64,000 nt of DNA from Nicotiana tabacum (Eukaryota; Streptophyta; Magnoliopsida; Solanales; Solanaceae). Shown one piece after another: positions 15,204 through 49,522 of this stretch. A program made the position numbers and the translations under genes. The notes under the pieces were generated by a model that was given only the letters and a program-made list of their open reading frames with translations, made no database searches and had not been told where the DNA came from. Each line of letters begins with the position of its first letter. Position 1 is the first letter of the stretch. The stretch covers positions 25,660,609-25,724,608 of the forward strand of contig NC_134100.1 of NCBI RefSeq assembly GCF_000715075.1. Reading direction: 5' to 3'.

Positions 15204-15232
15204 GGCCGTTGATCTCAGAGTGATCAACGGCC
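15204..15232. promoter_or_regulatory. perfect 11-bp inverted repeat in U3
   Basis: GGCCGTTGATC and GATCAACGGCC are separated by seven bases, about 160 bp upstream of the TATA box. The same arrangement is in the 3' LTR (34556-34584). It is a candidate transcription-factor palindrome. Related half-site wording (GATCTAACGG) recurs nearer the TATA box. Confidence 0.5.
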
Positions 15233-15390
15233 AAGATCAACTCCCCATAACCCGCTAATGGCCTCGACCCGTTTCCACCCGGACCAACCCAAACCCCCAT
15301 TAGTTGAAACGACACCGTTTCCCCTAAACTCTTAGATCCAGACCGTAGATCTTGATTGATCTAACGGTTGAGATCCACCTACCCACTAAC

Positions 15391-15398
15391 TATATAAG
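15391..15398 (+). promoter_or_regulatory. LTR TATA box
   Basis: TATATAAG in CTAACTATATAAGCCC is the clearest TATA box in the LTR. It is preserved in the 3' LTR (about 34743). Transcription would start about 30 bases downstream. A palindromic AACGACACCGTTT lies about 75 bp upstream. Confidence 0.65.
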
Positions 15399-15797
15399 CC
15401 CATAATCGTACCCTGCCCCCCCTATCCGAACCCCAGCCTTCGTCTCCACAAACCCTAGCCGCCCCTGCACACCTTCACCAGAACCCCGGCGGCATGAACG
15501 CCGGTGACCTCCACCTGAACACCATAGAACCCCCATGCCATCCTGAACCCAAATCTACCAACCACACACTTCGAATCCTATCCCACATTCTCGAATCTTC
15601 ATTTGAAGATTCGAGTCGGAACCTAATCTACACCGATCTGCTTTAAATTCATACCAGATACTCCCCAGACCCCCCTCGTGACCAAACCATACTTGGTTTG
15701 GTCCGAATCTGATCAGGGAAGCATGAATCCCAGATCTGAGTTTTGGAAATTTTGTGTTCCTCCGTCACTGGTTCAACCGAAGAGATTAAGGTCTAAT

Positions 15798-15847
15798 GGA
15801 CTTTAATCAAAGTGTTTCTCATCTGAGAAACACTTTGTTTAAAGTCC
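15798..15847 (+). other. long hairpin in R/U5
   Basis: GGACTTTAA pairs with TTAAAGTCC, and CAAAGTGTTTCTC pairs with GAGAAACACTTTG around an ATCT loop, giving about 22 bp of nearly perfect stem. The 3' LTR copy (35163-35212) has one change, which leaves a mismatch. It would fold in the genomic RNA leader and could serve packaging or dimerisation, or feed small-RNA production. Confidence 0.6.
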
Positions 15848-18368: not shown

Positions 18369-18393
18369 CGAGGGTGCCTAACACCTTCCCTCG
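18369..18393 (+). other. conserved hairpin near the LTR 3' end
   Basis: CGAGGGTG-CCTAA-CACCTTCCCTCG folds into a short stem-loop. The loop and inner arm GTGCCTAACACCTTCCC also occur in the unrelated LTR fragments at 1586 and 5169, and in a changed but still paired form in the LTRs at 45984 and 56521. It may act in polyadenylation or another R-region role. Confidence 0.55.
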
Positions 18394-18640
18394 GGTCAAC
18401 AGAATTACTTACTTAGAATTTCTGGTTTGCAGACTTCATTTGGAAAAGTCTAAAATTTCCTCGATTTGGGATTCAAGATAAACCGGTGACTTGGGACACC
18501 AAAAGCCAAACCTTTCCCAAGTGGCGACTCTGAATTAAATAAATAATCCCATTTCGAATATTGTCACTTAAATTGGAAAAACTCCACCCGCGCATTTAAC
18601 CCTTCGGGGCCGGGCACGCAAAAAGAAGGTGTGACAGCTC

Positions 18641-18657
18641 TGGCGACTCTGCTGGGG
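18641..18657 (+). other. primer-binding site, tRNA-Arg type
   Basis: TGGCGACTCTGCTGGGG follows the LTR end after a four-base spacer (GCTC). This is the PBS form I recall for Ogre elements, complementary to a tRNA-Arg 3' end. The inner element at 56500-56516 has the same PBS with C in place of T at one position. Confidence 0.8.
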
Positions 18658-20019
18658 AATGTATGACCCAGAACCACTGGTTCAGGGTCCAAGAATTCGA
18701 GCTTAGAATAATTGTTATATTTGGCTTTATTATCTGATCTTTATTACATGTTTTTGCATAACGTGCTAAATGTTGTCTTTTACCGCTTTGATATTATCTG
18801 AACTGTATATAAACTGTGCCGAAACCCTTCTCTTCTCACCTCCGGGGAGAAGCTCGCTGGTCGAGACTCCCTATTCTGTTAGTGTCAATACCTGAAATAA
18901 GAAAGAGGTCGGACAAGTTACAAAGCCGGACGATCTCGCGAGTCCCCGGTACGTAGCCCCCCTCCTCGACTCGAGTTGTCCGCTCGGGTACCCAGTCAAG
19001 AACAAATACCCAGGTTACGAACCTAGAATAACTTGACTCCATGCCGGATCCCTAGTAGGAACGCTTATTCGCATCATGTTGCATTTGACTTAGGGGACTC
19101 AACACAGGGATTGGGTCCGTCTAGGGCAGGCAACCTGAAATGAAAAAGACCATCATGCTGCATTCCTATCTGTGTTGTGCATTTATTTGCTTCGGTTCCG
19201 CATGTCGACCGGTTCCTAAAAAAAGAAGGAAAAAATAGCAGCATAGGGGAGATAATTACTTATTTTTGGAAAACAAAACCAATGTCCAAGTAGTGTCAAA
19301 ACCTCGCCGGAATTTTTCTAAAAAAAAAAAAAGAAAAAGAATAAAAGCAAAATTTGTTTTCTTAGTTTGAATTATTAAAAAAGAAATATACAAAAATTTT
19401 CTTTTCATCATTTCCAAAATCAAAAAAGGGTATTTATTTAAAAGAAAAAAAAAACGGAAATTCATAATTAAAAAAAAAAAAAAGTTGTTTCTTTTATAGT
19501 ACCCCTTTTTTATAAATTCAGGCTAATAGTCCAAATATTTCCAAAAAAAATTAGTGATAAATATTTTCTTTAATCTTTATCTCTTTTCAAATAACAAAAA
19601 AATATGTATTCTTGATTTCTAGGTTTATTTGATTTTCTCTATTCATGATATGCCTGAACTACGCCGGTTTGATTCTCACCGGATGTGAGATACGTAGGCA
19701 ACCCTCGTCGGGTTCAACCCCCATTTTCGCTAAAATAGCCAAAATCAATAAATAAAAAAAATGTGTCAAATTTTAAAAGGGTCATAAATAAGTCGGGTGA
19801 CGTTGTTTTGTCATAAATAGCCGAATGTTCCCGAAAGGGACGCCGGAAGGCTGACTTCGCATAAACAGCCACCTTTGGGTCTTGTTTAGCATTTTTGTCC
19901 AGTTGACCCACACAGCCTTAAAATCTTCATCCCCGAAGTGTTTAATGGCCGTGTTCAAAACTTGACCCCCTTTGTAAAATATTTTTGAGTCAGTCATTTT
20001 GTTAAAATCACCTTAATAA
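18658..20019 (+). other. Ogre leader between PBS and ORF1
   Basis: This is 1.36 kb without a credible gene. The first 450 bp is related to the leader of the element at 45984-59808 (56000-56180 on its minus strand). An A-rich stretch (19230-19490) and the structured motif at 19654-19716 follow. A T-rich tract and AATGTGCAG just before ORF1 could be a splice acceptor, which would make ORF1 the first exon after a leader intron. I see no decisive donor. Confidence 0.7.
19654..19716 (+). other. Ogre inter-module structured motif, copy 1 (before ORF1)
   Basis: Outer stem TGAAC/GTTCA, second stem CTACG/CGTAG, inner hairpin TCTCAC-CGGAT-GTGAGA, and the constant phrase GATACGTAGGCAACC. The matching copy in the inner element is at 55641-55703. 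Confidence 0.75.
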
Positions 20020-22077
20020 ATGTGCAGGATGAGCACGATGCAAAATGAACATTTTTCAATAATGACAAAAATCCCTGTCAAGTTACGGCTATGGTGGAAT
20101 GATCTAGGTGTTGAAGGACAAAATGAGGTTAAGAAATATCTGAAAGGTCTTGTGGGTTTATTGGAAATCCAGCCTCGGGGAGATATCATAAGAGCTTTGG
20201 TTACCTATTGGGACCCGGCGCACAATGTTTTCCATTTCTCTGATTTTGAACTCACCCCGACTTTGGAAGAAATGGCCGGATACATCGGGAATACTGAGCT
20301 TCCCTTGAGGGAAAAATACTTGGTCGCCCCAAGAGTCGTCACGGTACATCGGTTCCTAGATTCATTGAAGATACCTAGAACAGTCCACAACCCGGATCTG
20401 GCAGCCGGATTTTGTACTCCATGCTTCATATATGATAGGTACGGTCATGAGGGGGGATTCAATAATCCAATCAACAAACTGTGCAGCAAAGGAGTTCGTC
20501 AGAAGTGGGACGAGCACAGACGGGTAGCGTTCATGATAATGTTCCTGGGCCTTCTGGTATTTCCAAGGAAAGATGGAAACATTGATTTGAAGGTATCTGG
20601 GGTCGTCAGCACTTTACTCACGCAAAGTGACAGCACTCTCGCGCCTATGGTGGTATCCGACATCTTTCGAGCTCTCACAGCTTGTAAGGCTGGGGGAAAT
20701 TTCTTCGAAGGTTGTAACTTGCTCCTACAGATATGGATGACCGAGCACCTCTGCCATCATTCCGAGATTTTGAGCCATGGTTCCCCGGAAAAGACCCGCA
20801 TAGAAGAATCTTACACGAGAACCAAAGAGATCATTTTGCCCAAAGGAGTCCTGGCATGGACCTCGTTCTTTCAAGCTCTTACTGCCAGCCAAATACAATG
20901 GACGTTGGGATGGTTGCCTGTTGATGAGATCTTATATATGTCGGTGGCTAAAACTCATTTCTTGCTGATGGGGCTTAAGAGCATTCAACCTTACGCACCC
21001 GGCCGAGTCTTGAGACAGTTCGGAAGATGCCAGACAGTACCTCATAAGGAAGATCTTAGCGTTCAAGCAGTTGAGATAAGTCCTAACGGACAGTTCCCAG
21101 AAGCAAAGATTCGCCAAATCTGGAATGAGGGTCAATATTTGAAATCAGATACTTGCGTGCGGGATCGAGCCAAAGGAGAAACGGTGCCAGGTTACCTTGC
21201 ATGGTACAGAAGGGAACTTGAGCATGAAAGGCCAGCTAAGAGACCCCACATCCGGAATTTCACCGAGTCATCGCAAAGGCATTGGGATTGGTTAGCAAAG
21301 GAAAGAGGCTATTGTGCCGAAATCAGCAGGTTAAAGCAACATGTAGAAGGCATGAAATACGAGCACAACGTGCAAATTGCTACCGATCTGGGAGAGCGGA
21401 ACAGGTTAATTCAAGAAAATGAAATTCTCAGAGCCCAGATCAAACAGATAAGGTTGGATGCAGATAAACAGCCAAGGCGTCGATCAGACGAGCACCTGAT
21501 AAAAAGACTAAAAAGCGAGATCAGAGAATGGCAATATGGTTTGGAGAAGTCCGAAAGCGTCATAGCAGAGCTCAAAACGCAGTGGGATACGAGAGCAGAT
21601 AAGCATCGTCGACACCTGAATCGATTGGAAGGCGACCACGAGAAAACTATTGCTGAAATAAAGAGGGAGATGGCTACACTTAAGACCAAAGCAGCTAATC
21701 AAGCCAAGGATTTCCAAATTGAGAGCAGATATTGGTACGACTCAATAGCCCAGATGAAGTTGGAAGTACGGCGACTAAAGCATCAGCATGTACAAGATGC
21801 TCAAATCTTCGAGATATGCAGCGATCAGATAAAATGCATGTTCGAAGAGAAGAAGCAAACCAGAGATAGGATCAAGGCTATTGCCCATGCCATCACCAGA
21901 CGATGTCTACGATGTGAGAACATGTCCAGCGTTACCGTCCTCTCGGCAGTAATGAGTTATGTCAAGCAGACTATGCACGAGCTGGAGCAACTTGAGAGGG
22001 ATCTCACGCCTAGGACCGCGGCGAGGCCGAACGATGCCCCGCGGAAACCAATTTTCAAAACCATAATGCACTCATAA
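20020..22077 (+). CDS. Ogre ORF1 protein, plant-mobile-domain-like with coiled coil, 685 aa
   Basis: This is an intact 685-codon frame starting ATGTGCAGG; another ATG in frame at 20029 could also serve. Residues of about 20-370 resemble the plant mobile domain/DUF7745-type fold found in Ogre ORF1 and in some host proteins (RLWWNDLG, GDIIRALVTYWDP, FSDFELTPTLEEMAGYIG). Residues of about 420-640 are highly charged and heptad-like, so probably coiled coil. A CLRC pair lies near residue 628. There is no signal peptide or membrane segment. ORF1 lies upstream of gag in Ogre elements and its function is unknown; nucleic-acid or chromatin binding is only a guess. The inner element at 45984-59808 has lost it completely. 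Confidence 0.85.
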   Translation: MCRMSTMQNEHFSIMTKIPVKLRLWWNDLGVEGQNEVKKYLKGLVGLLEIQPRGDIIRALVTYWDPAHNVFHFSDFELTPTLEEMAGYIGNTELPLREKYLVAPRVVTVHRFLDSLKIPRTVHNPDLAAGFCTPCFIYDRYGHEGGFNNPINKLCSKGVRQKWDEHRRVAFMIMFLGLLVFPRKDGNIDLKVSGVVSTLLTQSDSTLAPMVVSDIFRALTACKAGGNFFEGCNLLLQIWMTEHLCHHSEILSHGSPEKTRIEESYTRTKEIILPKGVLAWTSFFQALTASQIQWTLGWLPVDEILYMSVAKTHFLLMGLKSIQPYAPGRVLRQFGRCQTVPHKEDLSVQAVEISPNGQFPEAKIRQIWNEGQYLKSDTCVRDRAKGETVPGYLAWYRRELEHERPAKRPHIRNFTESSQRHWDWLAKERGYCAEISRLKQHVEGMKYEHNVQIATDLGERNRLIQENEILRAQIKQIRLDADKQPRRRSDEHLIKRLKSEIREWQYGLEKSESVIAELKTQWDTRADKHRRHLNRLEGDHEKTIAEIKREMATLKTKAANQAKDFQIESRYWYDSIAQMKLEVRRLKHQHVQDAQIFEICSDQIKCMFEEKKQTRDRIKAIAHAITRRCLRCENMSSVTVLSAVMSYVKQTMHELEQLERDLTPRTAARPNDAPRKPIFKTIMHS

Positions 22078-22688
22078 GTCAAAACTGTATCTTAGCACTT
22101 TCTGCCTATTTTTCCCATCAGGGTGATTTTTAGTCTATTTTTGAGTTTAGGTTTATTTTCAAAGTTTGCCTTTTCTTTTGCAAAATGTAGCTTGTAATAG
22201 AACGTTGCAACAATAAAGAGGTTGTTTCTTTTACGCTCATTTGTGTTTTTCGAACTACGTAATGATTTGATTCACGTAGGCATCGTGATACGTAGGCAAT
22301 CCTCATCGGCTCCGGTCGCATTTCTTTTACTGCAAAATAAAAAAAACATAAAAGAAAAACAAAAGAGAAAAAGAAAAAGAAAAGAAAGAAAAAAAAAAGA
22401 AAACTAAATGCCGGAATGACGCATGCTCTCGTAGCAAACATATAGTAATCCACTTAACTGTATAGGTGCATCATGCCCAACGTGAGATTAACTATCTGTT
22501 ATTTGCTACAAAATTAACCGTACGTTTGTCATTGAGTATCCCAGGGTTTTTGAAAAGACGGTTGGTTTGGTGAAAGTCTGGCCTCGCACTCATATTTCAC
22601 GAGGTCAAGGAGAAGTGTTCGACTACCTGTTGTTAGGGCCAGAAGCAGCACTCACACTTACTTCACCAGGTCAAAAGGAAGTGTGGAA
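22078..22688 (+). other. spacer between ORF1 and gag
   Basis: About 610 bp. It holds the structured motif at 22251-22314, an A-rich stretch (22337-22405), and a region of about 120 bp before gag with repeated CACGAGGTCAAGGAGAAG- and CACCAGGTCAAAAGGAAG-like wording. No separate gene is supported. The gag protein probably needs its own translation start or a spliced message, because ORF1 ends with a stop. Confidence 0.65.
22251..22314 (+). other. Ogre inter-module structured motif, copy 2 (ORF1-gag)
   Basis: Second stem CTACGT/ACGTAG is perfect. The inner hairpin TCACG-TAGGCAT-CGTGA is perfect. The outer stem is weak here. The counterpart at 54919-54983 has TCATG/CATGA, a compensated change. 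Confidence 0.75.
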
Positions 22689-25600
22689 ATGTCTTCAGAA
22701 ATTCCATTGCAAACGATCCCTGTTTCTGAGGAGAGCTCAATCTCAGCCGTCCTCACACCTGAATCCGCAACTGCGGAGGAAAATAGAATCCTACGGCTCC
22801 GCATGCTGGAAATGCTGGACGATTGGAATAATGGGAAAGAGCCGCCAAGTGTCGTCCCCGGATTCCCTGAATTATTCTCCAGGTCAAGTGGAACGTCTAA
22901 TGTCCCCATAAATTATCCTGCTACCCCATTTGGGTACCCAGCCACCTCCGCCTTCTCTGCTGGATCACCTTCTGAGCCTCATCCCCGAATGTCGGCCACT
23001 GATGCAAGCATGAACATCTTTGCTGCATCGCCTTGCCCGGTTACGGCACAGCCCACCACGTACAAGCCAAGCTTTGACTCATCCTCTTTTACATTCCAAG
23101 CACCATCGTTCTCAATGGAACCAACTAGGTTCGCTACCAGTACCAATCCTCTACCGCCTCAGTGCGAGCTTGCACCTGGGCAGGATCAGAACCCCAGAAT
23201 TGCAGAACAAAATGAGATTGCCAAGAGAATGAGAAGCCTTGAACAAAGTCTGAAGAATATGCAAGGATTGAGCGGACAAAAAAGCGTCTCTTACGCCGAC
23301 CTGTGCATGTTCCCTCACGTGCACCTGCCAACGGGTTTCAAGACCCCCAATTTTGAGAAATACGATGGGCACGGTGACCCCATTGCACATCTTAAGAAAT
23401 ACTGCAACCAATTGCGGGGAGCCGGCGGAAAAGAAGAACTGCTAATGGCATACTTTGGGGAAAGTCTAGTGGGGATAGCTTCGGAATGGTATATGGATCA
23501 GGAAATGTCCCGATGGCATATATGGGATGATCTCGCTAGAGATTTTGTAAAACAATTCCAGTATAACATCGACATTGCGCCGGACCGAAACTCTCTGTCG
23601 AATTTGAAGAAGAAGCCTTCGGAGAGCTTTAGAGAGTATGCTATTAAGTGGCGTGAACAGGCGTCGAGAGTGAAACCTCCCATGGACGAAGTGGAAATGG
23701 TCACTACCTTTCTCCAGGCTCAAGAGTCTGACTATTTCCAAAACATTATGTCGGCCATGGGTAAGCCATTCGCGGAAGCGATCAAGATCGGAGAGATGGT
23801 GGAAAATGGGTTGAAGACAGGTAGGATTCTGAGTCAAGCAGCCATAAGGGCAACCTCCCAGGCTGTCCAAAGTGGGTCCGGAGGAACGACGAGGGGGAAG
23901 AAGAAGGAAGAAACGACTATGGCAGCCTCTGAAGCAAGGGAGTATCGTCATCCCAGGCCCCATTTTCCGGAAAGAGCCCCACAACACTACTACCCCCACT
24001 CAAATTTGGCATATGCTCATCAACCTTATATGGTCATGAATGCCCAACCTTACAACCATCCACCACAACAAGCCAACCGAGGCCCAGCTCCACCTCCCAG
24101 AAATCAGCCTCCTTACCGCAACCACTATAACCCACAACCCCCGCAGAATAACTACCGCCCCCAGGAGCCACCTCGACGGCGGAATTTTACGCCCATCGGT
24201 GAACAATACTCTACTTTGTTCCCTAAGCTAGTCCAGTTGGGTTTCTTGCAACCAATTCCCCAAACGAGGCAAAACCCAACATCGCCTTCTTACAAAGCCG
24301 GAGTCAGATGCGCCTATCATTCAGGAGCCGAGGGACATGATACAAACGACTGCTGGTCATTGAAAAGAGTGGTCGAAAATTTGATAGAGCAGGGGAAAAT
24401 AGTGCTAAGGGACGAAGAGATCCCAAATGTGACTAACAATCCATTTCCCGCTCACAATAATGGGCCGCTGATCGGCATGATTTGTGAAGACAAAGAGTTC
24501 GACCCTGCTTTGAAAGCCATAATTGCCATTGTCGACACGGGGAAGAGGCCAGAAATAAACCAGAAATCAGAAAAGGGGGAGGAGGCCAAGGCTGTAAAGA
24601 GCAAGCCTGAAAAGAAGGTGGAGAAGAAAGTGGTACCAGCAAAGGGTGGAGTTCTTTACATACCACGAGGTCAAGCCAAGAAGACGCAGAACTTCGGGAT
24701 CAAAAAGACAAAACCTATGTACGTGCCGAAAGGGGCCTATGTGGTCCGGGGGACGATTCAACCACCTCGGCTGAATGAGCCAGTGGTTATCGGACGCGTG
24801 CCACAAAAGCCAATGACCAACCCGTCCACAGTACCGTGGAATTATCAAAAGACTTTGGTAATGTACAAAGGTAAAGAGGTCATGGGAGAACTTCCAGGAA
24901 ATACTTTCATTGGAGGGTACTCAAATACCCAAGAACTGAACAACGCCACACAAAGGCGCTTCCCTCCAAAGAAGCCTGTGAGTGTTGAAGAAGCGGAAGT
25001 GTTCTTCCAACAAATGAAGATGCCGGATTACGAAGTGATAGATCAGCTGCGCAAGTACCCTGAGCAAGTATCCATGCTGTCATTATTGATGAGGTCGACT
25101 GAGCATCAAAAGATCCTATTGAAAACCCTGAATGAAGCATATGTACCAGTTGAAACCTCGGTAGAACAACTAGAGCGGATGACAGAAAGATTCTTCGCTG
25201 TCAACCAAATCTCTTTCAGCAAAAACGATTTACCCCCGGAAGGAGCAGCACACAACAAGGCCTTGCATTTAACAGTTAAATGCGAGGTCTACTATGTCAA
25301 GCGGGTAATGTTGGATGGAGGCTCAGGCGTTGACATTTGCCCGCTCTCCACGCTACAAAGGATGGAAATTGGGACCGGAAGAATCCGACCCAACAATGTC
25401 TGCGTAAGAGCTTTCGACGGCATCAAGAGAGATACCATGGGAGAAATAGACCTGTTGTTGGTCATAGGACCAGTCGAATTTCGAGTAACCTTCCAGGTGA
25501 TCGACATGGACACATCCTACAATTTTCTCCTTGGCAGACCTTGGATCCATGCGGCAGGAGCCGTGCCTTCCACTCTTCACCAGATGGTAAAGTTCGAGTA

Positions 25601-26215
25601 TGAAGACCGAGAGATCGTGGTCCATGGGGAAGATGAGCATGCCATTTATCGGGACCCATCCATCCCGTACCTCGAACCGAGAGAAGGAAGTGAACATACG
25701 GTCTATCAAGCTTTCGAGATTGTACTGGCAGAGCAGCACGAAGATGGAATACCCTACCCCCAGCCTTTCTTGTCTAACGCCTCGTTTATGGTGGCCAAAG
25801 AGATGATCCGGCACGGATTTAGGCCAGGGAAGGGGCTTGGACGAACCCTTCAGGGAATAACAGAACCTATTACTTTGCCAATCATCAAGAAACCTTTTGG
25901 ACTAGGTTTCAAACCTACTCCAGCGGACGAAGAATTGGCCAAGAAAAGGAAAAATGAGGGTTGGAAGTTACCTCAACCACTGCCGGATTTATATGCGACT
26001 TTCATCAGGCCGAGGTACATTGAAGAAGAAGATGATGAGGTCTTCACAGCTGAGGAAATCGAGGAGATATGTGGGGCAATGAGAGAGATGCTCTACGAGA
26101 TCCACATGGTTCAGCCAGGTGAAGGAACGAGCACTGCCGAGATGCTGTACATGGGGCCGAGCGCCCAACTACAAAACTGGGAGGCTACGCCATTCCCGAC
26201 TAGACGGAAGTCCGG
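22689..26215 (+). CDS. Ogre gag-protease (first exon of gag-pro-pol)
   Basis: The ATG at 22689 is chosen over the in-frame GTG at 22683. In order: a proline/serine-rich N-terminus; a gag capsid-like region (about residues 215-400, with ARDFVKQFQYN near 285); a proline-rich linker; a knuckle-like CxxHxxxxGHxxxxC motif (Cys about 541); a lysine-rich segment; and an aspartic protease with LDGGSGVDICP (Asp about 876). A G-patch-like GFRPGKGLGRTLQGI follows (about 1040-1065). The frame has no stops until TAG at 26217-26219. That stop lies just inside a GT donor at 26216, so splicing bypasses it. The protein is the structural and maturation part of the particle. Confidence 0.9.
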
Positions 26216-26427
26216 GTAGACCTGTCCTTCCACCTTTCCTGTGTCACAAGCTATCTCCGGGACATAACTTGAACGTTTTCTTGTTTTTATTGTTGCTTTG
26301 AATTCCTAGTTGTGAACATTGTTGTCTTCCAACTTTCCAAAGAAAATATAAAAAAAAATCATCATTGCTTTCCTATTCTTTCTTTTGTTCTGATTTTTAT
26401 CATTTTTTCTTTTATCTTCCTTTTCAG
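26216..26427 (+). other. intron between protease and RT (212 bp)
   Basis: The donor is CCGG|GTAGAC and the acceptor is ATCTTCCTTTTCAG. Exon 1 ends with two bases of a codon (GG) and exon 2 begins with T, giving Gly and then the pol frame, so the removal is in phase. The intron is T-rich and contains in-frame stops. Ogre elements are known to carry an intron here, and unspliced RNA would make gag-pro only. Confidence 0.85.
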
Positions 26428-29400
26428 TCCTAATAATGCGGCTTTAAATATGACATGCTTGCGGACTTCACGCCCAGATCACAATGAGTTATTTAACTGT
26501 GAATTAATGAACCCAGAACCAGAATATGATGCGGAAGAGGCTTTTAGGGAGATAAACCAAGAGTTGAAATATTTCGAGAATAAACCTAAGCCAAATCTGA
26601 ATGACACTGAATCAGTAAACTTAGGAACCCCGGAAGAAGTCCGGGAGACCAAGATAAGCATTCACACGGACGAGAAAACGCGAGAGGCGATAATTCAACT
26701 TCTTCTTGAATTCAAAGACGTGTTTGCTTGGTCATATGATGACATGCCGGGACTAGGTGTTGATCTAGTGGTTCATAAATTGCCGATTCATCCTGATTAT
26801 CCTCCAGTTCAACAAAAGCAACGAAAGTTCAAAACTGAGGTCAGTGACAAGATTAAAGAGGAGATCACCAAGCAGCTGAAAACGGGAGTGATTCGGGTAG
26901 TCCAATATACAACATGGCTGGCGAATGTGCTTCCAGTACCGAAAAAGGACGGGAAAACTCGGGTATGTGTAGATTACCGAGATCTGAACAGAGCAAGTCC
27001 TAAAGATAATTTCCCGCTGCCCAACATCCACATCCTCGTTGATAATTGCGCCAAACACGAGATACAGTCTTTTGTAGATTGTTATGCTGGGTATCATCAG
27101 GTGTTGATGGATGAAGAGGACGCCGAGAAAACTGCCTTCACCACGCCTTGGGGCACCTACTGTTACCGGGTCATGCCATTTGGTCTGAAGAATGCTGGGG
27201 CTACTTACATGAGGGCCATGACTGCCATTTTCCATGACATGATGCACCAGGAAATAGAGGTGTACGTGGATGACGTGATAGTCAAGTCTAGGACGCAGGA
27301 TAATCACATCCAAGACTTGAGGAAGTTCTTCGAGAGGCTAAGGAAGTATGACTTGAAGCTGAACCCAGCCAAATGTGCTTTCGGAGTTCCGTCGAGCAAA
27401 CTTTTGGGCTTCATCGTAAGCAGGAGAGGAATCGAGCTAGATCCAACCAAGATAAAATCCATCAGAGATCTGCCTCCCCCAAAAACAAAGAAAGACGTGA
27501 TGAGTCTTTTGGGCAGGTTGAACTACATCAGTCGGTTTATTGCCCAGCTGACAAGCACGTGTGAGCCCATATTCAAGTTGTTAAGGAAAGATGCGGCGAT
27601 TAAGTGGACAACTGAGTGTCAAGAAGCCTTTGATAAAGTCAAAGAATACCTTTCGAATCCCCCGGTCTTGGTCCCTCCAGAACCGGGAAGGCCACTTTTC
27701 TTATATCTAACAGTCTTGGAGAACTCTTTCGGCTGCGTCCTCGGGCAACACGACGTAACCGGAAAGAAGGAGCAAGCAATCTACTACTTGAGCAAGAAAT
27801 TCACCGGCTACGAAGCCAAATACACTCTGCTGGAAAGGACATGTTGCGCTCTCACATGGGTTGCTCAAAAGCTAAGACATTATCTCCAAGCCCACACTAC
27901 ATTCCTCATAAGCAGGTTGGATCCTTTGAAGTATATATTTCAGAAACCAATGCCTACTGGGAGACTGGCTAAATGGCAAATCTTGCTTACGGAATTCGAC
28001 ATAGTTTATGTCACTCGCACGGCAATGAAAGCCCAGGCATTAGCAGATCATTTGGCCGAAAATCCGGTCGATGAGGAATACCAGCCATTGGATACCTACT
28101 TTCCAGATGAAGAGGTAAACACCGTAAAAGTGATCTCGGAGGAAGCTCATGTTTGGAAGATGTTCTTTGACGGAGCCGTGAACGCCAAGGGTGTAGGGAT
28201 TGGGGCAATTTTGATCTCGCCTTCCGGTCAGCATTATCCCGCCACAGCTAGGCTTCGTTTCTTTTGCACAAATAATACAGCTGAGTACGAAGCCTGCATC
28301 ATGGGCATGCATATGGCAATCGATCAGGATGTCGAAAACTTATTGATTATGGGAGATTCTGACCTGATCATCCGGCAAGCTCAAGGCGAATGGGAAACTC
28401 GGGATGTCAAACTTATCCCATACCGACAACATGTGGAGGACCTCAGCAAGCGCTTTACATCAATAGAATTCAGGTACATTCCGAGGTGTCACAATGAATT
28501 GGCAGATGCACTTGCTACTTTGGCTTCAATGCTACCCTACCCGGGCAACGCCCACGTCGATCCTTTGGAAATCCAAATCAAGGAAAGACACGGTTACTGC
28601 AGTGTAATCGAGGCGAGATCAAATACGCAGCCTTGGTACCATGACATCAAGAGGTTCCTGAAGACGCAAGAATACCCCGAGCACGCTACTGGAGATCAAA
28701 AGAGGACCATCAGGCGACATGCAAGTGGTTTCTTTTTGAGCGGTGAATTGTTATATAAGAGGACCCCGGACCTCAATCTCCTAAGATGTGTCGATATCGA
28801 GGAAGCGAAAAAGATCATGCATGAAGTACACGCAGGTGTGTGCGGACCTCACATGAACGGGTATGTCTTAGCGAAGAAAATCCTTAGAGCAGGTTATTAC
28901 TGGATGACCATGGAAAAGGATTGCTTTAGCTTCGTTCGGAAATGTCATCAGTGTCAGGTGCACGGTGATTTGATTCATGCACCTCCCACGGAACTGCATC
29001 CCATGTCCGCACCTTGGCCATTTGTCGCTTGGGGCATGGACGTCATTGGACCAATTGAACCAAAGGCCTCGAATGGACACAGGTTTATACTGGTTGCCAT
29101 CGATTACTTCACAAAATGGGTAGAAGTTGTCACTCTCAAGTCGGTCACTAAGAAAGCTGTGGTGGATTTTGTACACTCAAATCTTATCTGTCGCTTCGGT
29201 ATTCCTGCGACTATCATTACAGATAACGCAGCAAACTTGAACAGTCACTTGATGGGAGACGTATGCGAGCAATTCAAGATAACGCATAGGAATTCCACTC
29301 CTTATCGGCCAAAAGCCAATGGTGCCGTGGAAGCAGCAAACAAAAACATCAAGAAGATTTTGAGGAAGACTATCCAAAGTTCCCGACAGTGGCATGAGCA

Positions 29401-29881
29401 GTTACCATTTGCACTATTAGGGTACCGCACTACGGTACGCATATCGGTGGGAGCGACTCCTTATCTTTTGGTTTATGGGACCGAGGCTGTAATACCAGCA
29501 GAGGTAGAAATTCCTTCGCTTCGAATCATTGTCGAAGCAGAAATCGAAGACAGCGAGTGGGTTAAGACTCGACTGGAGCAATTGACGTTGATTGATGAAA
29601 AGCGAATAGCCGCAGTTTGTCACAGACAGTTATACCAACGAAGGATGGCCCGTGCTTACAACAAGAAAGTCCGACCCCGGAATTTCGAAGTAGGTCAGCT
29701 GGTACTAAGGCGTATTCTGCCACATCATGAAGAAGCAAAAGGAAAGTTTGCCCCAAATTGGAAAGGCCCATACATCGTAAGGAAGATATTGCCGAGAGGA
29801 GCATTGTATTTAGGTGATATAGAAGGAAATGACCCCGACACAGCAGTAAATGCAGATGCAGTCAAGAGGTACTACGTCTAA
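26428..29881 (+). CDS. Ogre pol: RT, RNase H, archaeal-type RNase H, integrase
   Basis: The exon has no good start codon of its own near 26428 and continues from the spliced gag-pro exon. RT has VCVDYRDLNRASPKDNFPLP, MPFGLKNAGATY and the catalytic YVDD (27263-27274). The native RNase H (about 27690-27910) reads LYLTVLENSFGCVL where LYTDAS is usual, so its first catalytic Asp is gone. The second, archaeal-type RNase H (about 28150-28530) keeps Asp (28169), Glu (28283), Asp (28354) and Asp (28505). Integrase has an HHCC zinc module (about 28820-28955) and a DD35E triad at 29039, 29222 and 29330, and ends with a GPY/F-like module. No stops or frameshifts are seen. Confidence 0.95.
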
Positions 29882-30022
29882 ATCATACTCCAGTGGTCCT
29901 GACACATTTGAAAATGGCAAAGGTTTTATTCCCCACTACTCCCCAAACACTACCCAATTCTCTCTGCCAACTTTCGAGCCGCTTACAAAACAAAAAAAAA
30001 AAAACATAACATTGAAAGAGGC

Positions 30023-30082
30023 CTGAACTACGTTTGACTTGATTCCGAAAGGATACGTAGGCAGCCTCTCCCTGAGGTTCAG
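30023..30082 (+). other. Ogre inter-module structured motif, copy 3 (after pol)
   Basis: Outer stem CTGAAC/GTTCAG, second stem CTACGT/ACGTAG and inner hairpin TCC-GAAA-GGA are all perfect. It starts 142 bp after the pol stop. The same block ends the coding part of the non-autonomous copies (1273 and 53078). Confidence 0.8.
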
Positions 30083-30244
30083 TCACACCAACAATAAAAT
30101 CCCATTCACCTTGAAATTGAAACCGGGGCACGTCGAGCAGTTTAGAAGTTAGTATCAGCTACTTCTCTTTACCAAGTACAAGCCTTCAAATCAATTACCA
30201 AAGATAGTAGGAAACCAATAAGCGTCACAAATGGAGACCAGCAC

Positions 30245-30430
30245 ACTCTGAATTGAGAGAGATAAAATGAGAGAGTCTCGGCGGTGAAAACCTTCGGGCA
30301 CCACGAGGCGACGGGAGTAGAGAAACCAAAATGAGAGAGCTTGTTTAGTAAAAAACTCGTAAAGAGTGCTATCAAGTGATGACAGGAAGAGAAATGAGAG
30401 AGGTCAGCCAGCGAAAACCCGCAAAGGGCG
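30245..30430 (+). repeat. three spaced ATGAGAGAG blocks
   Basis: Three imperfect repeats of about 60-70 bp each contain (A)AATGAGAGAG followed by a GGTGAAAAC or GTAAAAAAC phrase and a GGGCACCA or GGGCGC phrase. A related triplet is in the inner element on the minus strand (52695-52875), so it predates the split of the two families. Confidence 0.55.
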
Positions 30431-31619
30431 CTGTTGGCCGAAAAAGAATGACGCCACCCCAAGAAAGTTTCGGCAGAGTGCCACCAGTTTGGAATCACAA
30501 AGATCCGTTCTGGTTCAGGAAAACGCAAGCTCTTAGAAGGTCAGACGTCCAGTCCAAAGAGCATGTCATGTCAATTAAAGCCAGCGTTATCTTCCTCAGA
30601 TAAGTCTCTCTCGTCCCGAAAAGGGTATTCCTTTTCTGATTTGTTTTCCCCTTTCTTTGTTTCTTCCCGAATCCCTTTTGCATTTTAACCCCGAGTTCAG
30701 GACACACCGGAAAGGACAGGTGGCAGGTTTGTTTGCACGGAATCCCGTCTCATGAAGGAAAGCGCCTCATCTCGTTGATATGATTACCCCAGCATGATGA
30801 ATCATGACGTTTGATGGTGTTTCGGAGTAAAGAAGAAAGAGAGAAATCTTGAAATCTACCCCAGCAAGTCCACCTTCGGACAAATCCCCACAGAGTCTCC
30901 CCCTGTACAAAACCCCACAGAGTTTCTCTTTTTGTACAATCTCCCACAAAGTCTCCCTAGTATGAAAAAAAAAAATCCCCGTTGGAATTTCATCAGCACA
31001 TCCCCAGCGAGTCCTTTTGTAAATATTCCCCAACAAGCTTACCCCAACAAACCCTGGGAAACCCGTTTTGAAACAAAAACCCAGCATACCCCATTGTACA
31101 GAATCCGCACAAAGAATCCACTTTGTAAATATTCCCCCACAGAGCTTCCTTTTGTACAAGTTCCCACAGAACACCTCCAATAAAATCCCCGTTGAGAACC
31201 TTCAATCAAAACGGGACAAAAAGAAAAAAGAGGCCTTACGAGGTAAATCATCACAGAATCCGGAAATACAAGCCTGAGCAGTCTAAGGGTTTCGCCATTC
31301 GAATCAAATCAATGGCGGGACTTCGCAACAGAAATAGAGACGCAACAAAGCAATTGGGAACGATCAAGGTCACCAAACCAACCGTCGTTTCCGAACTAAC
31401 AATTGTTCTTTGTCTGAAAAGTTGAAACAGGAATAATCCAAGACAACCATGCAAGAAGCGGGTGTCGCCCAAAGAAGAAGGTACACGGGTACAAGAAACA
31501 TTTTGGCAATAAGGAATTCACTCAAAAGGTAAGTTCCCGCAAAACTCCCTTTTATATTCTATTAAAACAAGAAAACTCAAAAATAGATCGTGTAGTATTC
31601 TCGAGCTTTATCCCCAGCC

Positions 31620-33275
31620 AATCAGCATTAGGGTTTTAAAACCCTATACTGAATTTTCCTTTTAATCAGCATTAGGGTTTTAAACCCTAAACTGAATTTT
31701 CCTTTTAGTCAGCATTAGGGTTTTAAACCCTAAACTGAACTTTTTCCTTTCAGCCAGCATTAGGGTTTTAAACCCTAAACTGAGCTTTCCCATGCAATCA
31801 GCATTAGGGTTTTAAACCCTAAACTGAATTTTCCTTTTAGTCAGCATTAGGGTTTTAAACCCTAAACTGAACTTTTTCCTTCCAGCCAGCATTAGAGTTT
31901 TAAACTCTAAACTGAGCTTTTTCATGCAATCAGCATTAGGGTTTTAAACCCTAAACTGAATTTTCCTTTTAGTCAGCATTAGGGTTTTAAACCCTAAACT
32001 GAACTTTTTCCTTTCAGCCAGCATTAGAGTTTTAAACTCTAAACTGAGCTTTTTCATGCAATCAGCATTAGGGTTTTAAACCCTAAACTGAATTTTCCTT
32101 TTAGTCAGCATTAGGGTTTTAAACCCTAAACTGAACTTTTTCCTTTCAGCCAGCATTAGAGTTTTAAACTCTAAACTGAGCTTTTTCATGCAATCAGCAT
32201 TAGGGTTTTAAACCCTAAACTGAACTTTTTCCTTTCAGCCAGCATTAGAGTTTTAAACTCTAAACTGAGCTTTTTCATGCAATCAGCATTAGGGTTTTAA
32301 ACCCTAAACTGAATTTTCCTTTTAGTCAGCATTAGGGTTTTAAACCCTAAACTGAACTTTTTCCTTTCAGCCAGCATTAGAGTTTTAAACTCTAAACTGA
32401 GCTTTTTCATGCAATCAGCATTAGGGTTTTAAACCCTAAACTGAATTTTCCTTTTAGTCAGCATTAGGGTTTTAAACCCTAAACTGAACTTTTTTCTTTC
32501 AGCCAGCATTAGAGTTTTAAACTCTAAACTGAGCTTTTTCATGCAATCAGCATTAGGGTTTTAAACCCTAAACTGAATTTTCCTTTTAGTCAGCATTAGG
32601 GTTTTAAACCCTAAACTGAACTTTTTCCTTTCAGCCAGCATTAGAGTTTTAAACTCTAAACTGAGCTTTTTCATGCAATCAGCATTAGGGTTTTAAACCC
32701 TAAACTGAATTTTCCTTTTAGTCAGCATTAGAGTTTTAAACCCTAAACTGAACTTTTTCCTTTCAGCCAGCATTAGAGTTTTAAACTCTAAACTGAGCTT
32801 TTTCATGCAATCAGCATTAGGGTTTTAAACCCTAAACTGAATTTTCCTTTTAGTCAGCATTAGGGTTTTAAACCCTAAGCTGAACTTTTTCCTTTCAGCC
32901 AGCATTAGAGTTTTAAACTCTAAACTGAGCTTTTTCATGCAATCAGCATTAGGGTTTTAAACCCTAAATTGAATTTTCCTTTTAGTCAGCATTAGGGTTT
33001 TAAACCCTAAACTGAACTTTTTCCTTTTAGTCAGCATTAGGGTTTTTAACCCTAAACAGAACTTTTTCCTTCCAGCCAGCATTAGGGTTTTAAACCCTAA
33101 ATTGAGCTTTTCCATGCAATCAGCATTAGGGTTTTAAACCCTAAACTGAACTTTTCCTTTAATCAGCATTAGGGTTTTAAACCCTAAACTGAATTCTTCC
33201 TTTGTTCGGCATTAGGGTTTTAAACCCTAAACTGAACCTTTCCCCATCTAGTCGGTATTAGGGCTCCAACCCTGA
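31620..33275 (+). repeat. tandem satellite, 43-45-bp monomers in a 132-bp higher-order unit
   Basis: About 38 monomers each carry CAGCATTAGGGTTTTAAACCCTAAACTGA-type sequence. From about 31796 the starts of the AATCAGC monomer recur every 132 bp (31796, 31928, 32060, 32192, then 32281 after loss of one monomer, then 32413, 32545, 32677, 32809, 32941). Each monomer has an inverted pair TTAGGGTTT/AAACCCTAA. In one monomer of the three, both arms are changed to TTAGAG and CTCTAA. The edge monomers are more diverged, as expected for unequal exchange. Confidence 0.95.
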
Positions 33276-33832
33276 ACTGAGCATGCATATCCTCTTTCAT
33301 CAATTTTATGAACTTCCTGGTGAATAATTAACGAAATTTTCCTAGTGAAACTGGGGCAGAAAATTTCGTCCGTTTGTTTTCTCCCGCAGGTCTAACCTCG
33401 AGCCACACGGATCGAAATGACCCACGAGATGAGTCTCAACTCAGAATCAAAGAAGAAAAAGACAAAAGAAGACATCCCGAGATATTAGAGTAAATGGAGA
33501 GCAGATCGACTCCAACATTTGACTAAGGTCCTAAACCCTGCCAATCGCGTCTCACTCAGTATCCCAGAGGTTAAACAAGTCGCTGCAACTCGCAAGCATC
33601 GAGATTCAGATCGGAGTCTACAAGCAGAATCAGCTAAGACCCAAGATCAAGTCGTAAAAGAATCATAGATAGGAATCTTGTAACTAGCAGTTGACGTGCA
33701 TATAAGTAGTTAGTTCAGTTTCCAATTTTCGTTTGGTTGTAATAAGGCGGTCAGTGACGTAGCAGTGACAACAGCAGCAGCAGTAGCAGCAAGCATTGCA
33801 ATCCCATGGTAGTCCCAGCTACCAAAACCTCT

Positions 33833-33899
33833 CGAACTACATTGACCTGATTCCTGTTTAGCCCAGGATATGTAGGAAATCTTTGAAGCAAGATTCGGT
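33833..33899 (+). other. Ogre inter-module structured motif, copy 4 (before the PPT)
   Basis: Second stem CTACAT/ATGTAG and inner hairpin TCCTG-TTTAGCC-CAGGA are perfect. The outer pairing is CGAA/TTCG. The counterpart at 49456-49522 has TCCTT/AAGGA. Confidence 0.75.
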
Positions 33900-34002
33900 C
33901 AGATCTTTCAAAAAAAACATGCTTCATACGGAGTGGTCCATAGGCAAAAATCGCTCATACACGCTCACTTTATCTTTGCACGAAAACTATTCGTGTTTCC
34001 GA

Positions 34003-34017
34003 ACAAAGAGGGGCAGC
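34003..34017 (+). other. polypurine tract of the Ogre element
   Basis: ACAAAGAGGGGCAGC lies immediately before the 3' LTR. It matches the PPT of the inner element (49343-49357, minus strand: GCAAAGAGGGGCAGC). Confidence 0.9.
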
Positions 34018-37000
34018 TGTGAGCACGTGATTTTTGTTTTTTGCGCGACAGTCGCTCCAAAAGAATAAAAATTGGTCCTGCTGTAAAATTTTTGGATTTC
34101 TGTGCGGCACTTTGTTGATTTATTTGTGACTTTGGCCCATTTTTATTTATTTACTTTATTAAAACAAAATTCAAAAAAAAAAATGTGTACGTGTCATACA
34201 TAATCTGAACCGTAACATGGTTTAAATAGAAAGGCATAAACAGGCATCTTTGTCCGTGATTTTGTTTTATTTGATTTTACTTGTTTTGAAATATTTTAGT
34301 GTGTGTGCGAATAATTGTATTGAGTGTGTATTTAATTTTTGATTTTTTTGTTTAGTTTTGTTTTTAAAATAAATAAGGAAAAGAAATAAAAATAATAAAA
34401 AAAAGAAAAGAAAAGGTCCCTTCTTCCTTTCCGGACTTGGGCCAATTTGTCAAAATTGGCCCAAACAAATAATGCCCAAAACCCAGGCCTGCCCGGTCCA
34501 GACCACCTGATACCCAGGGCGTCCAAACGACGCCGTTTTGGTCCAGTGTGATCTGGGCCGTTGATCTCAGAGTGATCAACGGCCAAGATCAACTCCCCAT
34601 AACCCGCTAATGGCCTCGACCCGTTTCCACCCGGACCAACCCAAACCCCCATTAGTTGAAACGACACCGTTTCCCCTAAACTCTTAGATCCAGACCGTAG
34701 ATCTTGATTGATCTAACGGTTGAGATCCACCTACCCACTAACTATATAAGCCCATAATCCTACCCTGCCCCCCTATCCGAACCCCAGCCTTCGTCTCCAC
34801 AAACCCTTCCCCTCAAACCCTAGCCGCCCCTGCACACCTTCACCAGAAACCCGGCGGCATGAACGCCGGTGACCTCCACCTGAACACCATAGAACCCCCA
34901 TGCCATCCTGAACCCAAATCTACCAACCACACACTTCGAATCCTATCCCACCTTCTCAAATCTTCATTTGAAGATTCGAGTCGGAACCTAATCTACACTG
35001 ATCTGCTTTAAATTCATACCAGACACTCCCCAGACCCCCCTCGTGACCAAACCATACTTGGTTTGGTCCGAATCTGATCAGGGAAGCATGAATCCCAGAT
35101 CTGAGTTTTGGAAATTTTGTGTTCCTCCGTCACTGGTTCAACCGAAGAGATTAAGGTCTAATGGACTTTAATCAAAGTGTTTCTCATCTGAGAAACACTT
35201 CGTTTAAAGTCCGTTCAGCCTTAAGAAAGGCCTGACCAAGTCCGAGTTAAGGTTTTTGATCTGTTGCGGTTTAAGGTGAGTTTTTTTCTTTTCTTAGTTG
35301 TTTTGGTTCGTTTGATTGTTGTAAGGGTCTGTTCGTTTTCTGTTCATGTCCTTGACTTCTATCAACTGTGCTTCAACCACTTTGCCTGAACCTCTGTTGT
35401 TTGTCTAAATCCCCCCTCCTATTCTGATAAGGCATTATATATTTGTTTGTGCAAGTAGCTGATTTTTGAGTTTGGACTGACTAGTTGACTCCTCGAGTGC
35501 ATTTCTGCTTAGTCAGTATAATTCAAACCATGTATCGATACTGTTTAAATGTCTGATTTTTGGCTACGATTGTGTATGTTAATGCTAATATAGTCGAGTC
35601 GACATGTGTCGTCAATTAGTTTCAACTGTCCGAACAATAACAAATCGACTTACTTCTGCTAAGCATTTGTTGAGTCAATTAAGAACCAGTTTTTGTTTAC
35701 TTATAGCTGTTGAATTGGATCAGTAATGTAAGAGGGATGTTTGGTTTAAATTCTGAATTGGAGGGCATGTGCACTCCTGCACAGCATGTGCATTGGTGCA
35801 CCTCATGTGCCTTGTGCCCAGCCTGTGGCCTGCATAAAGGTCTTTGTTAAGTTTTAAATGGTTTGACAGCATATGTTGTCAGATATATCCTACTGCCCAT
35901 ATTTGCTTTTAGTTAATAAAATGGGAAGGTTTAAGCCTGCCAGGGGAATGATGGGGTTTTAATACTTAATTAGCTAAAGTGGAACTGAAAATGGAAGGCA
36001 CATGGGAGGGTACTGTGATATTCTAAAACAGGCTGTCAAAAGGGTTGGTGTTAAGGCTTATAAAGGGGGGATAGACATACAGAAGAAAGGGATCGGATAG
36101 AGATAGACGGAATTAGAGGGGCTAAAAAATACAGGGAGAGGGGAAAATACACTGTGAGGAGTTTTGAAAGAGAAAGCTTGAAATACATACATTGTGAGGA
36201 TAGAAAAGAAAAAGAAAGAGTTGGCAGGAATAGAAAGAGAGCAAGAAAGAGATAAAACAGATTAAGAAATCAGAAACTTGGTCTTGTTTGTCTGAAGTTC
36301 ATCTATTGTCAATACGTTAGGCAGTGTTCCTTCTTCTAAATTTCAATCGAGATTATTGTTAGTGTTTTGTTGCATTTGGTATATTCCGGAATTGGATTGT
36401 CTGGAGTATTGTTGCCATCACACTGTGTGCTGTTTCATTTGGCTGTTTCTTCTTCAACTCTAGTTCCACCTCGCAACAGAATCCTTTCTGTTGTGCTGTT
36501 CTGATTGCTGCTGCTATTTTGCTCACTATTGCTGCTGCATTTCTGTCCTGCTGCTACTGTTAATTCTGCTTCTTGCTGCTGCTGATTCCCCCATCTTCTT
36601 CTTCTTCTCCTTTGCATTTTCAGCATTTTCAGGTACACATTTCAAGTCCCATATTGATGTAATTGAAACAGTTTGAAAGCATGAAATGAAAAAGGTTGAA
36701 GAAGTTCAAGTATTCGTTGTAATATTCATAGTACATTAACAGGCCTGTGAAAATTGATTAGTTTATAATTCAACAGTTCGAAAGTATGTACTGATATTCG
36801 ACTGAGTTTATCCTGTTGTATTTTAGCTCGGTAGTTGTTTGTTAATATGGGCATGTATACTTCGACCTTATACAATACTGTTCCTGTTTCATTTAGTTTT
36901 TTTAGTTAAGATTAGTCCACATAAGTTTAGTTAAGTTCAACTCGAGAAGTGTTCGGATTAAGTGTTGTATTTCGTTAGCTCGTACATGATTCTTTGTCAA

Positions 37001-49342: not shown

Positions 49343-49357
49343 GCTGCCCCTCTTTGC
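49343..49357 (-). other. polypurine tract of the non-autonomous element
   Basis: Minus-strand GCAAAGAGGGGCAGC directly precedes the 3' LTR start TGTAAATGCC. It is almost identical to the PPT of the intact Ogre. Confidence 0.85.
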
Positions 49358-49455
49358 TCAAGTACATGAAGAGTTTTCGTGCAAAGATAGTGAATGCCAT
49401 GACTAACTTTTGCTCACCTATGACTCTAATGAAAGCGTTTTTGAAAAAGGGGTGA

Positions 49456-49522
49456 CCGAACCTTGCTTCTGAGGTTGCCTACATATCCTTGGCTGTAAAG
49501 GAATCAGGTCAGTGTAGTTCTG
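49456..49522 (-). other. structured motif, pre-PPT copy of the non-autonomous element
   Basis: On the minus strand: outer GAAC/GTTC, second stem CTACA/TGTAG, inner hairpin TCCTT-TACAGCC-AAGGA. It corresponds to 33833-33899 with compensated changes in the hairpin. Confidence 0.75.

What the first reader, a model, noticed from the sequence alone, without database searches (positions are those of the whole stretch)
19654..33899. A covarying RNA-like motif repeated at every module boundary of the Ogre elements
A block of about 60-70 nt occurs at 19654-19716, 22251-22314, 30023-30082 and 33833-33899 in the intact element: before ORF1, between ORF1 and gag, after pol, and before the PPT. It recurs at the same four places in the non-autonomous element (55641-55703, 54919-54983, 53078-53137 and 49456-49522, minus strand) and at 1273-1332. 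All share GAACTAC...TGATTC...GATACGTAGG wording. Three nested helices are visible: outer GAAC/GTTC; second CTACGT/ACGTAG, which becomes CTACAT/ATGTAG in other copies; and an inner hairpin that appears as TCTCAC/GTGAGA, TCACG/CGTGA, TCATG/CATGA, TCCTG/CAGGA, TCCTT/AAGGA or TCC/GGA. Pairing is kept while bases change, and the motif survived deletion of the ORFs around it. This suggests a selected cis-acting RNA (packaging, translation re-initiation, splicing control or processing). I know of no description of it.
Basis: partly seen in the sequence, partly recalled or inferred. Interest (0 to 1): 0.87.

Follow-up and report, generated by a model that had tools for sequence, protein, structure and literature searches.

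The report
Four-copy RNA pseudoknot in plant Ogre retrotransposons
Giant plant retrotransposons carry the same knotted RNA structure of about 60 bases in each of four non-coding places, and evolution has kept its base pairs while changing its letters, so it very probably does a job for the element's RNA that has not yet been worked out.

Summary
The repeated block is real: nine copies in the window, four in each of two Ogre elements plus one in a fragment. The genome has 38,367 matches to one form of it. The CTACGT/ACGTAG stem (P1) and inner hairpin (P3) are supported. The outer GAAC/GTTC helix is not: it has no two-sided changes. Two helices were missed. One is a hairpin after P1 (P4). The other is a pseudoknot (PK), in which four bases inside the P1 loop pair with four bases beyond P4. 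PK pairs in 95% of cells, with two-sided changes in 4 of 4 pairs. Parsimony infers about 11 double changes there. G·U outnumbers A·C 81 to 19 in eight pairs, which points to the element's sense-strand RNA. Each copy resembles the same position in the other element more than other positions in its own. Copies persist in elements without ORFs. Rfam has no match. Most likely it is a cis-acting RNA tag for selecting or moving genomic RNA (packaging, perhaps export). That function is inferred, not shown. Other plant species could not be searched.

The parts
19656..19719 (+). motif copy m1 of element E1 (5' leader, about 1 kb after the PBS, before ORF1); PK GGTT/AACC
22252..22317 (+). motif copy m2 of E1 (between ORF1 and gag); PK GATT/GGTC
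30025..30084 (+). motif copy m3 of E1 (about 140 nt after the pol stop); PK GACT/AGTC
33834..33900 (+). motif copy m4 of E1 (117 nt before the 3' LTR); PK GACC/GGTC
55638..55701 (-). motif copy m1 of element E2 (minus strand, non-autonomous); PK GGTC/GGCC
54917..54981 (-). motif copy m2 of E2; PK GATC/AATC in register, imperfect
53076..53135 (-). motif copy m3 of E2; PK GACT/AGTC
49454..49520 (-). motif copy m4 of E2; PK GACC/GGTC
1275..1334 (+). motif copy of m3 type in a fragment of a further Ogre-like element at the window start; PK CACT/AGTC, one mismatch
14667..38000 (+). element E1 (autonomous-type Ogre): LTRs 14667-18636 and 34018-38000, 98.6% identical over 3997 aligned columns; target-site duplication GTCAT
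   Evidence: boundaries read from sequence
20020..22077 (+). ORF1, plant mobile domain / DUF7745
22683..26219 (+). gag-pro ORF with Retrotrans_gag and a G-patch domain
26312..29881 (+). pol ORF: RT, RNase H, second RNase H (RVT_3), integrase
45984..59808 (-). element E2 (non-autonomous Ogre, minus strand): LTRs 56521-59808 and 45984-49342; only gag and pol remnants matched inside

Best explanation
The block is one structured RNA of 56-69 nt on the sense strand of Ogre elements, present four times per element. 5' to 3' it reads: GAA; helix P1 5' strand (CUACG plus one further, often unpaired, position); 1-3 nt; pseudoknot strand PK5' (4 nt); UGAU; hairpin P3 closed by UC/GA; U; P1 3' strand; G(C/A); hairpin P4; mostly C; PK3' (4 nt). 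It is an H-type pseudoknot with a hairpin inserted in each long loop. Shown by sequence comparison: the structure, its conservation at four positions, and independence from the coding regions. Inferred: it acts in cis on the full-length RNA as a repeated recognition tag, most likely for selection of genomic RNA into Gag particles. The element's own gag-pro carries a G-patch domain, so a further step is conceivable: the G-patch recruits a DEAH-box helicase that remodels these knots during packaging, as in M-PMV, where the viral G-patch recruits DHX15 and DHX15 contacts the CTE region of the genomic RNA. Estimates: structured and selected RNA, about 0.95; packaging/selection as the main role, about 0.45.
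For: Structure: on 79 copies (78 distinct) 92.5% of cells pair; 236 cells change on both sides against 82.5 in shuffles, 0 of 500 as high; PK 97.4% paired. On 122 copies (120 distinct): 90.2%, 370 against 137.5, 0 of 500. Sliding the 3' partners by 1-3 columns drops pairing to 19-40%. All four PK letters pair in 91 of 100 rows not chosen by PK, against a shuffled mean of 55.4 and maximum of 66 in 2000. Parsimony on trees built without the tested columns: double Watson-Crick changes 11 in PK, 12 in two P3 pairs, 6 in two P4 pairs, 2 in one P1 pair. m1 copies show GGTT/AACC, GGTT/AACT and AGTT/AACT, a G-C, G·U, A-U series. G·U 81 against A·C 19 in eight pairs of PK, P3 and P4 (44 against 9 without the 20 PK5'-selected rows). 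Position: m1 predicted upstream of m2 was found in 12 of 14 regions, m4 beyond m3 in 6 of 8. Same-position identity between E1 and E2 0.78-0.89 against 0.58-0.74 between positions. cis role: loci L039 (four copies) and L047 (three plus one cut off by the locus end) have no ORF1, gag-pro or pol match at 1e-8; L034 (four), L044 (three) and window E2 (four) have only remnants. G-patch in gag-pro; M-PMV parallel from passages of PMC11459146.
Against: No experiment and no binding partner. All copies come from one genome, so conservation across plant genera is untested. Four copies, two of them far from the 5' leader, is unusual for a packaging signal (recalled). Two shuffle measures do not favour the structure: further pair types (377 and 379 of 500 shuffles reach the observed value) and, in A2, the number of pairs with a two-sided change (312 of 500; 35 of 500 in A1). 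Of 20 copies chosen for unusual PK5' letters only 9 pair fully, as expected if many are dead, but it shows PK is not always kept. Copies were gathered with patterns that ask for most of P1 and the TGATTC box, so conservation of those is overstated. Only one P1 pair covaries; there A·C is 6 and G·U is 0. The site list required C on the 3' side, so G·U was under-sampled, but the looser pattern used on the loci would have admitted it and found none. The last P1 pair is unpaired in 64 of 119 rows, 63 of them C·A. Some flanks are as conserved as the motif (m2 downstream flank 0.79 against 0.78 for the motif).
Confidence: 0.5

Rival explanations
1. It is a nuclear export or RNA stability element read by host proteins, comparable to CTE, RTE or MTE of animal retroelements, protecting or exporting a transcript with long non-coding parts and a partly retained intron.
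For: MusD's MTE works through a pseudoknot and kissing loop, and its ability to form the pseudoknot matters more than its letters (PMC3362945 passages; PMC12786077 passages). Ogre transcripts of pea and Medicago are partly spliced between gag-pro and pol (PMC6317226 passage). m2 and m3 lie soon after the ORF1 and pol stops (175 and 143 nt in E1). Non-autonomous RNAs would also need export.
Against: PMC12786077 says that plants use TREX rather than the TAP/NXF1 receptor (passage), which CTE, RTE and MTE use. A single element usually suffices for export (recalled); four position-specific copies are not explained.
Confidence: 0.25
2. It is an active RNA: a slow or regulated self-cleaving ribozyme, or an exonuclease-blocking RNA that defines fragment ends.
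For: Strand order P1-PK-P3-P3'-P1'-P4-P4'-PK' is that of the HDV ribozyme (HDV layout recalled), with a mostly conserved C (111 of 120) between P4 and PK3'. Pseudoknots also build exonuclease-resistant RNAs (recalled).
Against: No Rfam match even at permissive thresholds on one m1 stretch (E up to 10) and on seven short loci (E up to 1). HDV's A-rich J4/2, 7-bp P1 and L3/P1.1 core (recalled) are not seen. Cleavage at four sites would break the genomic RNA needed for reverse transcription.
Confidence: 0.1
3. It controls translation (internal entry, re-initiation, recoding) or splicing.
For: m1 and m2 precede ORF1 and gag. The TGAT box followed by GTAG|G could resemble a branch point and 3' splice site (inference, not tested).
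Against: In E1 no ORF of 200 aa or more follows m3 or m4. Copies stay in elements without ORFs. No copy lies in the gap between gag-pro and pol of E1, the place of the Ogre intron in pea and Medicago.
Confidence: 0.1
4. It acts as DNA (protein site, cruciform, recombination site) rather than RNA.
For: TACGTA is palindromic.
Against: Strand asymmetry G·U 81 to A·C 19 in eight pairs, pseudoknot pairing, variation CTACAT/ATGTAG that destroys the palindrome, no copy in the LTRs of E1 and E2.
Confidence: 0.03
5. Recent duplicates with chance matches and no function.
For: High copy number.
Against: In the window copies group by position, not by element; copies lie beside pol genes whose aligned pieces are 51-97% identical to E1's (47% in one 45-residue piece); about 11 double changes in PK.
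Confidence: 0.02

Closest known systems
MTE, the MusD RNA transport element (mouse LTR retroelement)
   Same: cis-acting retroelement RNA; forming the pseudoknot matters more than the letters (PMC3362945 passages)
   Different: one complex structure with a kissing loop; animal NXF1/NXT1 pathway; not described as repeated at four places
M-PMV constitutive transport element with the G-patch/DHX15 packaging route
   Same: retroelement that encodes a G-patch, and a region of its genomic RNA that includes the CTE is bound by the helicase (PMC11459146 passages); Ogre gag-pro also has a G-patch
   Different: CTE is not known as a pseudoknot and sits once near the 3' end (both recalled); no link between the Ogre G-patch and this motif has been shown
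Retroviral Psi and the Ty1 leader pseudoknot (packaging signals; both recalled)
   Same: pseudoknot or hairpins kept in non-autonomous relatives
   Different: mostly in the 5' leader; here four dispersed copies
HDV-like ribozymes (layout recalled)
   Same: same strand order of helices
   Different: no Rfam match; junction and loop core not seen; repeated within one transcript
Variable 3' UTR tandem repeats of Ogre elements (recalled)
   Same: arrays lie in the same m3-m4 region of E1 and E2
   Different: different sequences; not covered by the motif model

Membership tests
Ogre (Tat) LTR retrotransposons, as host of the motif | plant mobile domain ORF upstream of gag | tested here: met
   PF10536 and PF24924 in ORF1; the domain is reported in 57% of Ogre elements (PMC6317226 passage)
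Ogre (Tat) LTR retrotransposons, as host of the motif | gag-pro and RT-RH-INT in two ORFs separated by a short gap | tested here: met
   26219 and 26312, 92 nt between; the mean reported for Ogre is 274 bp
Ogre (Tat) LTR retrotransposons, as host of the motif | additional RNase H in pol | tested here: met
   RVT_3 besides RT_RNaseH
Ogre (Tat) LTR retrotransposons, as host of the motif | PBS type | not tested
   sequence after the 5' LTR was read but not matched to a tRNA
Any Rfam family, release 15 | covariance-model match | tested here: not met
   none at gathering score in the window; none up to E 10 in window 19600-19800; none up to E 1 in seven short loci
HDV-like ribozyme | strand order P1, P2, P3, P1', P4, P2' | tested here: met
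   helices counted; HDV layout recalled
HDV-like ribozyme | catalytic core (J4/2 with C then A, L3/P1.1, 7-bp P1) | tested here: not met
   between P4 and PK3' there is one base; P1 is 5-6 bp; P3 loop differs widely between classes; core features recalled
HDV-like ribozyme | self-cleavage 5' of P1 | not testable with these tools
   needs transcription in vitro
Retroelement packaging signal | required in cis; bound by Gag; enriched in particles | not testable with these tools
   only retention in elements lacking ORFs was seen
Retroelement packaging signal | kept in non-autonomous elements | tested here: met
   window E2, L034, L039 (four copies each), L044 (three), L047 (three plus one cut off)
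RNA transport element (CTE/RTE/MTE) | promotes export of unspliced RNA | not testable with these tools
   needs reporter assay
tRNA-like structure | ARAGORN call | tested here: not met
   0 in window

The most novel reading that the evidence does not exclude
An undescribed class of RNA pseudoknot, with the helix order of the HDV ribozyme but another core, kept at four separate non-coding positions of a retrotransposon genome. It may act as a distributed assembly code, with several Gag or helicase docking sites spread over a roughly 20-kb RNA, or as an active RNA (ribozyme or exonuclease block) that sets RNA ends.
Probability: 0.3. Interest if true: 0.9.

Novelty: new variant of a known kind. 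Interest (0 to 1): 0.76.

Why it matters
Plant LTR retrotransposons fill large parts of many genomes, yet the searches made here (listed under Tried and rejected) showed no cis-acting RNA signal described for Ogre elements apart from their intron. A motif with tens of thousands of natural variants in one genome gives a precise, testable structure. If it is the packaging or export tag, it would show how giant elements and their ORF-less relatives are recognised, and would give a sequence signature for finding non-autonomous Ogre elements.

Tried and rejected

Literature: ten searches of the open-access library, seen as listings and abstract starts, showed no description of the motif in what was listed; several lists were capped. 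Ten- and eleven-letter words of the motif gave 67 papers, of which the listed 40 looked unrelated by title and abstract start; none was opened. Passages only were read of PMC6317226, PMC12786077, PMC10817978, PMC11459146 and PMC3362945. PMC2596294 is not held. Subscription papers are not covered, so 'not in print' is not claimed.

Rejected: outer GAAC/GTTC helix; tRNA-like; known Rfam family; DNA-level site (G·U/A·C asymmetry). The free-energy fold alone gives mixed structures and cannot show the pseudoknot.

Not obtained: whole-genome counts of G·U and A·C at the variable P1 pair. The tool was busy at every attempt. R-scape was not available.

Limits: the parsimony tree comes from short sequences and is rough. 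Related copies are not independent, so shuffle counts and the binomial p of 2.7e-10 are not true probabilities. P4 is shifted by one column for one m3 class in A2, so P4 is best read from A1, and the P4 part of the G·U/A·C count (28 to 2) carries that noise.
Full report
What was claimed.

Where it lies. The window sits at C21:25660609-25724608 of a 3,996,098,646-base assembly. Its contig C1 has 222,086,288 bases, the same length as a contig listed for a Nicotiana tabacum protein, and the total is close to the published N. tabacum assembly (3,995,756,195; PMC10817978 passage), so the host is very probably tobacco. Element E1 spans 14667-38000 (boundaries read from sequence), with LTRs 98.6% identical. 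It encodes ORF1 (plant mobile domain), gag-pro with a G-patch, and pol. E2 (45984-59808, minus) has only gag and pol remnants. PMC10817978 lists 135.7 Mb of Ogre in tobacco, 3.4% of the genome.

The observation. A strict pattern finds 8 of the 9 copies, 0 expected. A covariance model finds exactly the nine, then a chance-level tenth; since the model contains these nine this checks completeness, not reality. The genome has 38,367 exact matches to one form (control read backwards: 0) and 8,859 to the CTACA/ATGTAG form (control 0). The tool says such counts can be lower bounds.

Position. In 28 loci around copies (8 of 3 kb, 20 of 10 kb, partly overlapping), copies lie by element order: m1 in the leader, m2 after ORF1, m3 after pol, m4 before the 3' end. 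Neighbouring pol pieces are 51-97% identical to E1's (47% for one piece of 45 residues in L044). Two tests by distance, without choosing by motif: m1 was found in 12 of 14 regions (misses L069, L080) and m4 in 6 of 8 regions of 3.5 kb (misses L095, L096). In the window, copies at the same position of E1 and E2 are 0.78-0.89 identical; at different positions 0.58-0.74. The 70-nt flanks are at or below the random level for m1 (both sides) and m3 (upstream), but are conserved at m2, m4 and downstream of m3 (0.64-0.79); the m2 downstream flank (0.79) is as conserved as the m2 motif (0.78). So the motif stands out at m1 and m3 only.

ORF-less elements. L039 carries all four copies and L047 carries m2, m3, m4 and a cut-off m1, with no match to ORF1, gag-pro or pol at 1e-8. 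L034 (four copies), L044 (three) and window E2 (four) have only remnants of gag or pol.

The structure. 87 raw matches gave 79 distinct copies (re-parsed to 79). MAFFT aligned them without structure. Reading the rows showed that the four bases before TGAT pair with the four bases after P4: GACC/GGTC, GGTC/GACC, GGTT/AACC, GACT/AGTC, GATC/GATC and others. With P1, P3, P4 and this pseudoknot, 92.5% of 1513 cells pair; two-sided changes 236 against 82.5 in shuffles, 0 of 500 as high; slid versions pair 20-40%. Not all measures favour it: pairs with a two-sided change (11) are reached by 35 of 500 shuffles and further pair types (26) by 377 of 500. PK is paired in 97.4% of cells, 4 of 4 pairs with two-sided changes. 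I then added 43 copies: 17 model hits (12 of them m1 found by position; an eighteenth, truncated hit, L086, dropped), 6 m4 found by position, and 20 chosen for unusual PK5' letters. On 120 distinct rows PK is paired in 95.0% of cells, P3 92.6%, P1 89.7%, P4 84.5%; two-sided cells 370 against 137.5 (0 of 500), but pairs with a two-sided change (12) are reached by 312 and further types (30) by 379 of 500 shuffles. All four PK letters pair in 91 of 100 rows not chosen by PK (shuffles: mean 55.4, maximum 66), in 17 of 18 position-found copies, and in 9 of 20 PK5'-chosen copies.

Independence. Trees built without the tested columns and simple parsimony give double Watson-Crick changes: PK 11, two P3 pairs 12, two P4 pairs 6, one P1 pair 2. 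In PK there are also 24 single changes from Watson-Crick to G·U and 18 to mismatches; in the P1 pair 7 to mismatches. The m1 series GGTT/AACC, GGTT/AACT, AGTT/AACT shows the intermediate.

Strand. In eight pairs (four PK, two P3, two P4) G·U occurs 81 times and A·C 19 times; without the PK5'-chosen rows 44 and 9. This fits pairing in the sense RNA. At the variable P1 pair the count goes the other way, G·U 0 and A·C 6. G·U was under-sampled there, because the site list required C, but the looser pattern on the loci would have admitted it.

Constant parts. GAA, CTAC, the A of UGAU, UC/GA at the base of P3 and the U before P1' are the same in 120 of 120; U, G of UGAU and G after P1' in 118-119; C before PK3' in 111. 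Much of this is asked for by the search patterns; C before PK3' and the closing GAA-P3 spacing are not.

Lineage. Another, degenerate element in the window (pol pieces 33-53% identical to E1; Retand-like by recall of its antisense ORF) has no copy. This is one element only, so it merely suggests that the motif is not general to all Tat-type elements.

Function. Shown by comparison: a selected sense-strand RNA structure, four per element, retained without ORFs. Inferred: cis-acting selection of genomic RNA. Gag-pro has a G-patch. In M-PMV a G-patch recruits DHX15, which contacts the CTE region and aids packaging (PMC11459146 passages). That parallel is a lead, not a test. Export through a pseudoknotted element has a precedent in MusD, but plants use another route according to PMC12786077. 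The helix order equals that of the HDV ribozyme (recalled), but no Rfam family matches and the HDV core is not seen, so a ribozyme is possible only as a new class.

Novelty. No Rfam match and nothing seen in the listings of ten searches of an open-access library; subscription papers were not available. A pseudoknotted cis-acting RNA in a retroelement is a known kind. Four position-specific copies per element, with this architecture, is a variant I have not seen described.

Noticed in passing
window 45984-59808 within about 38209-63481: E2 is nested in the RT region of another, degenerate Tat-like element (minus strand) whose LTR-like repeats lie at 38209-38855 and 62824-63481 (90% identical); an open frame antisense to it lies at 39069-39689, and it has no motif copy.
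   Followed up: partly
window 31613-33282 and 50241-51606: Tandem repeats (44/88/132-nt and 88-nt spacing) fill much of the m3-m4 interval of E1 and E2. The E2 unit, read antisense to the element, contains words like GAACTACG and GATTCC; probably chance.
   Followed up: no
just upstream of m4: window 33834 and 49520 (minus), L034, L039, L047: A short perfect hairpin (GGTAG-loop-CTACC) precedes m4 in these five places; its stem does not vary, so it is not testable by covariation.
   Followed up: no
window 33970-34012 and 49349-49392 (minus): Before the 3' LTR a CTTTG/CAAAG inverted repeat leads into the polypurine tract in both elements.
   Followed up: no
L026, L034, L044 and window E2: Elements without pol often keep a similar gag segment (within about residues 450-620 of E1 gag-pro), which might hold another cis signal.
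   Followed up: no
window 22683-26219: gag-pro contains a G-patch domain, as M-PMV does; a link to RNA packaging would be worth testing.
   Followed up: partly
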